NCBI GenBank assembly: GCA_025935155.1
Contig: JAICVV010000024.1
Location: 1-13,342, forward strand
Length of the DNA: 13,342 nt
Source: Alphaproteobacteria bacterium
Lineage (GTDB): Bacteria; Pseudomonadota; Alphaproteobacteria; Micropepsales; Micropepsaceae
Direction: 5' to 3'
Part shown: one piece after another, positions 8,701 to 10,666 of the stretch
Numbering within the stretch: position 1 is the first letter of the stretch
Layout: the number at the start of each line of letters is the position of its first letter
Translations under genes and position numbers: made by a program
The notes under the pieces: model-generated
What the model saw: the letters and a program-made list of their open reading frames with translations, nothing else
Database searches by the model: none
What the model was told of the DNA's origin: nothing

Positions 8701-9570
8701 TCATGGCCAGCGGACGGCGGGCGGCAGGCTCATTAGAATGGCGTCCACGTTCCCCCCCGTTTTCAGCCCGAACTGGGTGCCCCGGTCGTACAGCAAATTG
8801 AACTCCGCATAACGGCCGCGCCGCACCAGCTGATGCTCCCGCTCGGCTTCGGTCCACGGCTGCCCCATCCGCCTCCGGACGATTTGGGGATAAATGTCGA
8901 GAAATGCCAGCCCCACGTCGCGAGTGAAGGCGAAATCGCTCTCCCAATCCCCGGTGTCGAGATAATCGAAGAAGATGCCGCCGGCCCCGCGCGGCTCATT
9001 CCTGTGGGGCAGGAAGAAGTATTCGTCGCACCATTTCCTGAATCGGGGATAATAGCCGGGATCGTGAGCATCGCAGGCGTGCTCTAGCGCGGCGTGGAAA
9101 TCCTCAGCGTCCCCGTCGTTCGGAAACACGGGCGTGAGATCGGCGCCGCCGCCGAACCATCCCTTCGTGGTGACGATATGGCGGGTGTTCATGTGAACGG
9201 CCGGCACGTGGGGGTTCTGCGGGTGAACCACCACCGAAATCCCGCTGGCCCAGAAGCGGGGGTCTTCCGCAGCGCCCGGGATCTGTTTCGCGAACTCGGG
9301 CCCGAAGTTGCCGTAAACCGTGGAAATATTCACGCCGGCCTTTTCAAACACTCGCCCGCGCAGAATGCTTGTTTCTCCGCCGCCGTAGTCTTCGCCACTC
9401 TCGGAAGGACGCTCCCAGGCCTTCCGCTGGAACCTGCCGGGGGGCTTTTCCGAAAGCTGGCCGAATTTGTACTCGCCCTCGATCGCCTCGAACGCGGCGC
9501 AAATCCGGTCCCGCAGCTCCCCGAACCACGCCGCCGCTTTCTGTTGCTGAACAGATGCAACTGTTGACAT
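8701..9570 (-). CDS. hemF: Oxygen-dependent coproporphyrinogen III oxidase
   Basis: This 289-residue enzyme oxidatively decarboxylates coproporphyrinogen III to protoporphyrinogen IX using oxygen, a late step of haem synthesis in the cytosol. Family signatures are plain: [15 protein letters not shown] (106-120), PAVHMNTRH (123-131) with conserved histidines, [11 protein letters not shown] (140-150), [14 protein letters not shown] (182-195), and [12 protein letters not shown] (253-264) running on into TQFGLKTGG (265-273). Length is normal and no key motif is missing. The ATG at 9570 lies only 45 bases from the start of the divergent antitoxin-like gene. TATAAA just upstream would make a leader of only about 8 bases. 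The gene is followed by the TerC-family gene. Haem from this pathway serves the bc1 complex encoded to the right. Confidence 0.97.
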
Positions 9571-9592
9571 AATAGGAAATTTCCTTTATAGG
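9564..9592 (+). promoter_or_regulatory. Candidate sigma-70 promoter of the antitoxin-toxin pair
   Basis: TTGACA at 9564-9569 is a perfect -35 hexamer, followed after exactly 17 bases by TATAGG at 9587-9592, a fair -10. Transcription would begin near 9599, leaving a short leader with AGAGG at 9604-9608, seven bases before the ATG at 9616. The -35 box overlaps the start codon of hemF on the other strand. Confidence 0.6.
9574..9585. promoter_or_regulatory. Perfect 12-base palindrome in the promoter spacer, candidate operator
   Basis: AGGAAATTTCCT is its own reverse complement and lies between the -35 and -10 boxes of the toxin-antitoxin promoter, and next to the TATAAA of hemF. Autorepression through a palindrome in this position is standard for type II toxin-antitoxin modules. 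Which protein binds it is inference; the antitoxin-like product of the next gene is the first suspect. Confidence 0.5.
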
Positions 9593-9612
9593 AACACGAA
9601 GATAGAGGCAAT
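9585..9612 (-). promoter_or_regulatory. Candidate hemF promoter overlapping the divergent promoter
   Basis: On the minus strand TATAAA occupies 9590-9585 and ATTGCC / TTGCCT lies at 9612-9606, a 15 to 16-base spacer. The -10 is good, the -35 weak. It would start transcription about 8 bases before the hemF ATG. A longer transcript from upstream is an alternative. Confidence 0.35.
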
Positions 9613-9615
9613 TCC

Positions 9616-10095
9616 ATGGGCAAATATGATCGATTGGGTGCCTATTTGCGAGAACAGGGCCACGATCAAGTTCCAATGACCTTTGCGGAAATAGAAGGGG
9701 TGGTTGGCACAAAGCTGCCCAGCTCGCAAAAGCATCAGGCGTGGTGGAGCAACAGCACCTCCAATAACGTGATGACACAGGTGTGGCTGGATGCCGGATA
9801 CCGAACCGAGCAGGTGGATACGGCTGCGAGAAAATTGGTGTTCAGACGGATATCAGGTTCGGCAAGACCCCGGGGAATGGCTGAGTCAGCCAAGGAATTC
9901 ACATACCCGGAAGCAGGCGAAAAAAAACCACGCCGTTCGCCGTTGTTTGGCGCGCTGAAAGGCACATTCACATTCGCGCCGGGCTACGATCCCACCACTT
10001 CCATGTTCACGGATGAGGAATGGGCCGAGATCGAGAAGGAGATGGATGAGGATTGGGATCAGATTGAGCAGGGCATGACGAGCTGGAAGAAATGA
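9616..10095 (+). CDS. DUF7662-domain protein with antitoxin-like tail, putative antitoxin
   Basis: The 159-residue protein is read in two parts. Residues 2-79 fit the small family I know as DUF7662: KYDRLGAYLREQ, MTFAEIE, LPSSQKHQAWWSN, WLDAGYRTEQVD and KLVFRR fall in the family order. A basic, proline-containing linker (about 80-108) follows. The tail, 109-159, begins FGALKGTFTFAPGYD and continues with an acidic stretch rich in E, D and W. That resembles the toxin-binding ends of Phd/VapB-type antitoxins, which often read G-x-x-K/R-G, then acidic or hydrophobic residues. The PIN toxin gene starts within its stop (ATGA). AGAGG seven bases before the ATG supports the start. The role as antitoxin, and DUF7662 as its DNA-binding or dimerising part, is inference. 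A run of eight A at 9920-9927 sits in the linker. Base composition is lower in GC than hemF. Confidence 0.72.
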   Translation: MGKYDRLGAYLREQGHDQVPMTFAEIEGVVGTKLPSSQKHQAWWSNSTSNNVMTQVWLDAGYRTEQVDTAARKLVFRRISGSARPRGMAESAKEFTYPEAGEKKPRRSPLFGALKGTFTFAPGYDPTTSMFTDEEWAEIEKEMDEDWDQIEQGMTSWKK

Positions 10096-10508
10096 GCCGG
10101 CCGCTTCTGCTCGATAGCTGTGCCGCGCTATGGGTGATGGCCAACGATAAAATGCGCCCAACAGCAGTCGATGCGATCGATGAAGCTTCTGATCGACGGG
10201 AAACGGTTTTCGTATCGCCCATCACCGGCTGGGAAATCGGCCTCAAAGCCAAAAAGGGCAAATTCATCTCCCCGTACTCCCCGCAAAGGTGGCTGAATCT
10301 GCTTCTTGCGTTGCCGCAGATCACGTTGGCTGAAATGCCACCGCGTGTGTTGCTGGAATCTTCATTCTTGCCCGGGAATTTGGTGGGCGATCCTGCCGAT
10401 CGGATCATCGCGGCGACTGCCCGTGAATATGGATTTACGGTGATCACAAGGGACCGCGCGTTGCTCGACTACGCGGCGCAGGGGCATCTTGCTGTGATCG
10501 AATGCTGA
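10092..10508 (+). CDS. PIN-domain (VapC-like) ribonuclease toxin
   Basis: This 138-residue protein is a PIN-domain nuclease of the COG3744-like type. The opening LLLDSCAALW gives D8; SPITGWEIGLK gives E48; GDPADRIIAATA gives D103; and VITRDRALLDYA gives D121, so all four metal-binding acidic positions are present and the enzyme is probably active. Such toxins cut RNA, frequently tRNAs or rRNA, and stop growth when their antitoxin is lost. The ATG overlaps the stop of the upstream gene by 4 bases, a normal antitoxin-toxin arrangement that links their synthesis. Length is usual and there is no frameshift. The RNA target cannot be predicted. It lies between hemF and petABC, genes of core metabolism, and looks like a later arrival. 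Confidence 0.9.
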   Translation: MSRPLLLDSCAALWVMANDKMRPTAVDAIDEASDRRETVFVSPITGWEIGLKAKKGKFISPYSPQRWLNLLLALPQITLAEMPPRVLLESSFLPGNLVGDPADRIIAATAREYGFTVITRDRALLDYAAQGHLAVIEC

Positions 10509-10536
10509 GACGCTTCGTGGAATCGGCCGGATTTCT

Positions 10537-10551
10537 GCGGCATCGTGCCGC
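10537..10551 (+). other. Short GC-rich hairpin after the toxin gene
   Basis: GCGGCA and TGCCGC pair across a TCG loop, 29 bases after the toxin stop. No T-run follows, so it is at best a weak terminator or transcript 3'-end stabiliser. Confidence 0.25.
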
Positions 10552-10578
10552 GACGACCCCCCACACCCGACTCACTAT

Positions 10579-10592
10579 TTTGCGCCCGCAAA
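10579..10592. repeat. Inverted repeat upstream of petABC, possible operator
   Basis: TTTGCG and CGCAAA are perfect reverse complements separated by CC. The site lies about 83 bases ahead of the petA start, where an operator for the bc1 operon could be. I do not recognise the motif as belonging to a particular regulator. Confidence 0.35.
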
Positions 10593-10598
10593 TCGACC

Positions 10599-10627
10599 CG
10601 CGCAGGGATTTACCGGGGGCCTGCGCG
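10599..10627 (+). other. Leader hairpin before petA
   Basis: CGCGCAGG (10599-10606) pairs with CCTGCGCG (10620-10627), an 8-base-pair stem with a 13-base loop, ending 47 bases before the petA start. Another AGGGAT / ATCCCT pairing overlaps it and could compete. Whether it lies in the transcript depends on the unknown transcription start. Confidence 0.4.
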
Positions 10628-10661
10628 CGTGAGTATCCCTCCACCCCGGCGCGCCTGATTC

Positions 10662-10666
10662 AAGGG
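10662..10666 (+). promoter_or_regulatory. petA: Ribosome binding site deciding the petA start
   Basis: AAGGG is placed about eight bases before the GTG at 10675. The in-frame GTG at 10666 overlaps this site and has no Shine-Dalgarno of its own, which is why the later start was taken. Confidence 0.6.

What the first reader, a model, noticed from the sequence alone, without database searches (positions are those of the whole stretch)
9616..10508. Toxin-antitoxin module with a DUF7662 domain in the antitoxin position
The sequence shows a PIN-domain gene with intact D8, E48, D103 and D121, overlapped by 4 bases by an upstream gene whose N-terminal 79 residues fit DUF7662 instead of the AbrB, Phd, MetJ/Arc or HTH domains that normally precede VapC-type toxins. 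The upstream protein ends in an acidic tail starting FGALKGTFTFAPG, similar in style to PIN-neutralising tails. The reading is that a domain of unknown function has been joined to a standard antitoxin tail. DUF7662 would then be a DNA-binding or sensing module, giving a role to an otherwise uncharacterised family.
Basis: partly seen in the sequence, partly recalled or inferred. Interest (0 to 1): 0.8.

Follow-up and report, generated by a model that had tools for sequence, protein, structure and literature searches.

The report
Antitoxin with a swapped-in DUF7662 switch
Two overlapping bacterial genes look like a toxin-antitoxin pair in which a domain of unknown function, likely a DNA-binding switch, sits where other antitoxins of the same toxin family carry their usual DNA-binding part, which would give that orphan domain family its first role.

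Summary
Window 9616-10095 encodes DUF7662 plus an acidic tail and overlaps by ATGA a PIN gene (10092-10508) with all four acidic residues. In 398 phylum genomes searched with DUF7662 itself, 10 of 10 DUF7662 proteins with a C-terminal extension precede a PIN gene and 0 of 16 without one do; in 289 class genomes, 5 of 8 with an extension do. The same PIN subfamily elsewhere mostly follows Phd/YefM antitoxins. A profile of those antitoxins' tails finds 35 of 49 DUF7662 tails, 0 of 24 other DUF7662 C-termini and 0 of 490 shuffles. DUF7662 also occurs with VapB-type and other tails before other PIN groups. It is predicted as a winged helix (weak fold matches). The 14-mer palindrome TTCCTTTATAGGAA overlaps the promoter; in 41 genus genomes it occurs four times, each just before this antitoxin gene. 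Against: the co-fold left the tail at low confidence, the window's own tail and palindrome are marginal when tested alone, and toxicity and DNA binding are untested. Best reading: a VapBC-like type II system with an undescribed DNA-binding module; a new variant of a known kind.

The parts
9564..9592 (+). Promoter-like sequence TTGACA (9564-9569), 17 nt, TATAGG (9587-9592)
   Evidence: Read from sequence; the consensus scan reported none, since its rule demands T as last -10 base; untested
9581..9594 (.). Predicted operator: inverted repeat TTCC-TTTATA-GGAA over the -10 region; overlaps palindrome GGAAATTTCC (9575-9584)
   Evidence: the 14-mer occurs 4 times in 41 genus genomes, each about 20-30 nt before this antitoxin gene (at 4 of its 18 places there); backward control 0 times
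9604..9608 (+). AGAGG, ribosome-binding-site-like
   Evidence: Sequence; inference
9616..10095 (+). Predicted antitoxin, 159 aa
9616..9855 (+). DUF7662 part (residues 1-80), predicted winged-helix operator-binding module
   Evidence: Pfam; AlphaFold2 (pLDDT 87-97 by blocks of ten; H-E-H-h-h-H-E-E)
9856..9945 (+). Variable linker (residues 81-110)
   Evidence: Low conservation, low pLDDT
9946..10092 (+). Acidic tail (residues 111-159), predicted PIN-neutralising, of the GxxKGTxxxxxDxTxPxxxEW kind
10092..10095 (+). ATGA overlap of stop and start codons
10092..10508 (+). PIN-domain gene, predicted VapC-like RNase toxin, 138 aa
   Evidence: fold matches to VapC and FitB chains for a relative

Best explanation
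This is a predicted VapBC-like type II toxin-antitoxin operon in which the antitoxin's DNA-binding part is likely DUF7662 instead of the Phd/YefM domain found in most other antitoxins seen with the same PIN subfamily. The PIN protein would be an RNase toxin. The acidic tail of the upstream protein (residues 111-159) would bind and block it. DUF7662 (residues 1-80) would fold as a winged helix, bind a palindrome over the operon's own promoter (9581-9594) and repress it together with the toxin. Shown: gene pair, overlap, intact PIN residues, recurrent pairing, family-level tail homology with Phd-type antitoxins, several DUF7662-tail combinations, promoter palindrome. Inferred: toxicity, neutralisation, DNA binding, autoregulation.
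Confidence: 0.82

Rival explanations
1. The pair is a toxin-antitoxin system, but DUF7662 would serve dimerisation, antitoxin stability or ligand sensing, and regulation would come from elsewhere.
For: Fold matches are weak. Standalone and otherwise fused DUF7662 proteins exist. Operator similarity does not track DUF7662 beyond the tail.
Against: Winged-helix order, basic N-part (pI 9.2), palindrome over the promoter, and its place where other antitoxins of this PIN group have a Phd domain.
Confidence: 0.13
2. The PIN protein is a domesticated RNase with little toxicity, kept as a regulator beside the cytochrome bc1 operon.
For: The pair sits directly before petA in 12 of the 18 antitoxin places found in 41 genus genomes.
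Against: Only 17 of 41 genomes have it, sites without it exist, and the active-site residues are invariant.
Confidence: 0.1
3. The upstream protein is not the antitoxin; the neighbourhood is accidental.
For: No experiment; the co-fold did not dock the tail.
Against: 10 of 10 against 0 of 16 adjacency, tail shared with Phd antitoxins at family level, ATGA overlap, tail-PIN co-divergence.
Confidence: 0.03

Closest known systems
Phd/YefM-PIN pairs of Alphaproteobacteria (same PIN subfamily; L097, L098, L104, L110, L112, L113)
   Same: PIN subfamily, gene order, tail of the GxxKGS/T...P...EW kind
   Different: N-terminal Phd/YefM domain (PF02604) instead of DUF7662
VapBC, FitAB
   Same: PIN toxin with four acidic residues, antitoxin gene first, toxin-binding tail; the PIN fold of a relative matches VapC and FitB chains
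   Different: Their antitoxins use AbrB or ribbon-helix-helix domains (recalled; AbrB and RHH partners of PIN also listed in PMC2701414 passages)
DUF433/COG2442-PIN (Makarova 2009, PMC2701414; passages seen)
   Same: A domain of unknown function recognised as PIN antitoxin by neighbourhood; some members fused to winged HTH
   Different: Another domain family; no tail exchange with Phd in the passages seen
Panacea/NetFlax network (PMC10440598; passages seen)
   Same: Antitoxin modularity and partner exchange
   Different: Panacea pairs with dozens of unrelated toxin domains; DUF7662 joined to a recognised antitoxin tail was seen here only with PIN

Membership tests
DUF7662 (PF24698) | Profile match above the curated cut-off | tested here: met
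   52.4 bits against cut-off 26, residues 4-78
PIN domain, VapC-like (PF01850) | PIN profile match and conserved acidic residues | tested here: met
   51.7 bits against 23.6; D8, E48, D103, D121 invariant in 32 rows
Mtu_PIN_fam VapC subfamily (TIGR00028) | Match above the NCBIfam cut-off | tested here: not met
   12.6 bits against cut-off 73.6; not filed there
Type II toxin-antitoxin operon | Antitoxin gene first, overlapping or closely followed by the toxin gene, pairing conserved | tested here: met
Type II toxin-antitoxin operon | Antitoxin tail homologous to tails of known antitoxin families | tested here: met
   Family level: 35 of 49 DUF7662 tails found by the Phd-tail profile; the window's own tail is marginal (8.7 bits, E 0.95)
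Type II toxin-antitoxin operon | Tail contacts the toxin | tested here: inconclusive
   Co-fold of a relative left linker and tail at pLDDT 39-67; no coordinates to count contacts
Type II toxin-antitoxin operon | Toxin arrests growth, antitoxin rescues | not testable with these tools
   Needs expression tests
Type II toxin-antitoxin operon | Antitoxin binds its own operator | not testable with these tools
   Palindrome found; binding untested
Winged-helix domain (DUF7662) | Fold match to solved winged helices | tested here: inconclusive
Catalogued anti-phage defence system | Match to a PADLOC model | tested here: not met
   0 families for both proteins at E<=0.1

The most novel reading that the evidence does not exclude
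DUF7662 is a portable winged-helix operator-reading cassette that evolution has plugged onto at least four different PIN-neutralising tails (Phd-type, VapB-type, FitA-like and a further type), so one undescribed DNA-binding family runs several unrelated VapC lineages; in the VapB-type fusions it may have taken over from the DNA-contacting ribbon.
Probability: 0.65. Interest if true: 0.65.

Novelty: new variant of a known kind. Interest (0 to 1): 0.52.

Why it matters
It would give a first role to a Pfam family without one: no paper in the held library contains 'DUF7662'. It would also add a DNA-binding class to PIN antitoxins and let hundreds of genes now called 'hypothetical protein' or left unnamed (596 homologues) be annotated. 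It shows antitoxin halves being exchanged, with the toxin-binding tail kept and the presumed DNA reader replaced. The proposed binding site and both halves of the protein are short enough to test directly.

Tried and rejected
Tail-only protein search: 93 hits, 89 with PF24698; the other four (P0125, P0126, P0143, P0159) begin inside DUF7662, so no other N-terminal domain was found that way; the Phd link came from searching with the PIN. Viral contigs: no relative. Profiles against solved structures by sequence: none for PIN (E<=0.01) or antitoxin (E<=1). Operator against DUF7662 co-divergence: not discriminating. Sigma-70 scan: no site by its rule. PADLOC: nothing.

VapB-type tails: in seven proteins scanned, the PF09957 match begins at profile position 8 or later, which suggested that the ribbon strand is absent. 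But L109, an antitoxin that starts at its own N-terminus, also matched only from position 10, so the start of a local match is weak evidence and I do not lean on it.

Co-fold: the aim was to see the tail in the PIN groove. The tail stayed at low confidence; tail and PIN are joined by only a few residues and only three rows of 32 span both, so it neither supports nor excludes docking.

Considered and rejected: chance ORF overlap (596 homologues); a pseudogene pair (both frames open, invariant residues present).

Rows left out: for the Phd-tail profile, 18 of the 30 loci were used; L091-L093 are DUF7662 pairs, L115-L119 have another Phd tail kind, L102 and L107 have truncated or unclear tails, L114 and L120 show no upstream antitoxin. 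Ten of the 18 were scanned with Pfam. The 24 controls are those of the 31 other genome-contig loci with a C-terminal part, less L080. Of the 20 genome-contig loci counted as without PIN, 15 were read for downstream ORFs; L071, L072, L073, L075 and L080 were tested only with the group 1 PIN profile; several end near contig ends. The 16 PIN-less places were tested with that profile and by reading downstream ORFs, not with Pfam one by one. The class-survey places were read by eye, L084 and L085 also with Pfam.

Full report
WHAT IS THERE. The window lies in a 2.46-Mb, 465-contig genome. Named close relatives are Rhizomicrobium and other Alphaproteobacteria. Two + strand ORFs, 9616-10095 and 10092-10508, overlap by ATGA. 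The first has DUF7662 at residues 4-78 (E 4.5e-14) and nothing else in Pfam; the second has PIN (E 1.6e-13). NCBIfam names neither above cut-off, and PADLOC has neither. D8, E48, D103 and D121 are invariant in 32 aligned PIN sequences, the window's included. The antitoxin candidate is basic in its first 80 residues (pI about 9.2) and acidic in its last 49 (pI about 4.05; 12 D/E, 4 K/R).

PAIRING. The full protein has 596 homologues at E<=0.01; all 120 listed carry PF24698. Of 79 loci from named genomes, 48 have the same PIN group directly downstream. Eleven more have another PIN-domain gene there, all above the Pfam cut-off. Part of that scan's patterns came from the tail, so it favours tail-bearing genes. 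The fairer survey used the Pfam family itself on 398 phylum genomes: 26 places in 22 genomes. Ten of the 26 proteins, the window among them, have a C-terminal extension of 40 or more residues, and all ten have a PIN gene next: eight in group 1 by profile, L161 above the Pfam cut-off, and L164 just below it (20.8 against 23.6 bits). The 16 with little or no extension have none seen. The class survey is less clean: of 11 places in 289 genomes, eight have an extension; five of these are followed by PIN (L001, L081, L082, L084, L085) and three are not (L083, L086, L087). L083 and L087, like L069 and L074, end in another conserved motif. Pooling both surveys without double counting gives 14 of 17 with an extension and 0 of 18 without. 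In 41 genomes of the genus, 17 have the antitoxin, at 18 places. PIN follows in 17 of the 18; the exception, L136, is an 84-aa open frame matching only 68 residues.

DUF7662 IS RE-USED WITH OTHER TAILS. L050 joins DUF7662 to VapB_antitoxin PF09957 (28.4 bits, cut-off 23.4). L059, L060, L063, L065, L068 and L077 show matches to the same model below its cut-off. In all seven the match begins at profile position 8 or later, as if the N-terminal strand (recalled to be the DNA-contacting ribbon) were gone, but L109 matches from position 10 too, so this is weak. L040, L042 and L043 have longer tails; only L043 shows a weak FitA-like RHH match (E 0.022), and L042's antitoxin was not scanned. L084 and L085 have another tail and another PIN. 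L064 and L161 differ again. DUF7662 also occurs alone, with DUF4268 (L073 by Pfam; L075 looks alike) and beside a sub-threshold GIY-YIG match (L071). So the domain is not confined to antitoxins.

PROMOTER. TTGACA (9564-9569) and TATAGG (9587-9592) lie 17 nt apart, and the inverted repeat TTCC-TTTATA-GGAA covers 9581-9594. Upstream regions of the 49 group 1 pairs are rich in palindromes: 19 of 49 reach p<=0.05 against 60 dinucleotide shuffles each, binomial 8e-13. That value is too good, as the loci are related; and some of the 19 (L027, L035, L037, L061) lie further upstream or are G+C-rich and may be unrelated. The window's own best hit is p 0.13. The sequences differ by lineage, for example ATAGTTAC-GTAACTAT, ACACACTGTGTGT and ATATGTTAACATAT (read by eye). 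The window's 14-mer occurs four times in 41 genus genomes, each about 20-30 nt before this antitoxin gene; the backward control occurs zero times, and 14 of the 18 antitoxin places have other sequences. Shared descent may explain part of this. A Mantel test did not separate DUF7662 from the tail as the partner of the operator.

LOCATION. (The names hemF, trmL and petA are recalled from the sequences, not from a call.) In 12 of the 18 genus places the pair sits directly before petA, the Rieske gene, with 577-667 nt between the antitoxin match and the petA match. In the four carriers examined (L140, L143, L145, L147), trmL lies on the other side. In four genomes without the pair (L142, L144, L148, L149), trmL is next to petA and no antitoxin or PIN match lies between. 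The pair thus looks like a present-or-absent insert at a fixed site. In the window no trmL lies there and hemF is the neighbour.

MECHANISM. Committed reading: PIN is a VapC-like RNase; the acidic tail would clamp it; DUF7662 would bind the palindrome over the promoter and repress the operon with the toxin as co-repressor; loss of the labile antitoxin would free the toxin. Gene structure, family-level tail homology, domain exchange and palindrome are shown. Toxicity, neutralisation, binding and lability are inferred from what is known of VapBC and Phd systems.

KNOWN OR NEW. No paper in the held library contains 'DUF7662', and none holds both 'Rhizomicrobium' and 'toxin-antitoxin'. Four further searches on PIN antitoxins and antitoxin modularity were seen as listings, and two of the papers were seen in passages. 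Makarova 2009 (PMC2701414) lists RHH, AbrB, Phd, COG2442/DUF433, COG2880, COG1753 and MerR partners for PIN. NetFlax (PMC10440598) establishes partner exchange in general. The system is therefore of a known kind; within these searches, the antitoxin module and its exchange with Phd parts appear undescribed.

AFTER CHECKING.

Noticed in passing
P0024, P0119, P0140, P0178 (proteins; read): DUF7662 antitoxin relatives with two tail-like segments in a row, as if one antitoxin could hold two toxins or had just duplicated its tail.
   Followed up: no
P0165 (264 aa): A single protein fuses most of DUF7662, tail and PIN; it has lost PIN residues that are otherwise invariant (such as W47 and R111) and may be decaying.
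   Followed up: partly
window 9570-10666; loci L140, L142-L145, L147-L149: The pair sits between trmL (in the window, hemF) and petA as a present-or-absent insert; no trmL lies at this site in the window, and a second, partial SpoU methylase hit lies on contig C69.
   Followed up: partly
L069 1368-1820, L074 4001-4390, L083, L087: DUF7662 proteins ending in a conserved LxIxEAKAGLAxxFGxxxxxIEITI motif with no PIN seen next to them; role unknown.
   Followed up: no
L058, L062, L067, L079, L080 (Chloroflexota and Dehalococcoidia): DUF7662 with a shared C-terminal part of about 90 residues (ending FPxMLAxLGYxxxNWETxESW) and no PIN seen.
   Followed up: no
L073 3974-4738, L071 3989-4765, L057 541-1173: DUF7662 joined to DUF4268 (above cut-off), to a stretch with a sub-threshold GIY-YIG match, and to an uncharacterised part: perhaps the DNA-reading part of other effectors.
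   Followed up: partly
L175, L176, L178-L181, L183-L185: Short standalone DUF7662 proteins (about 90 aa) recur across one genus of large genomes without a PIN seen next to them; perhaps stand-alone regulators.
   Followed up: no
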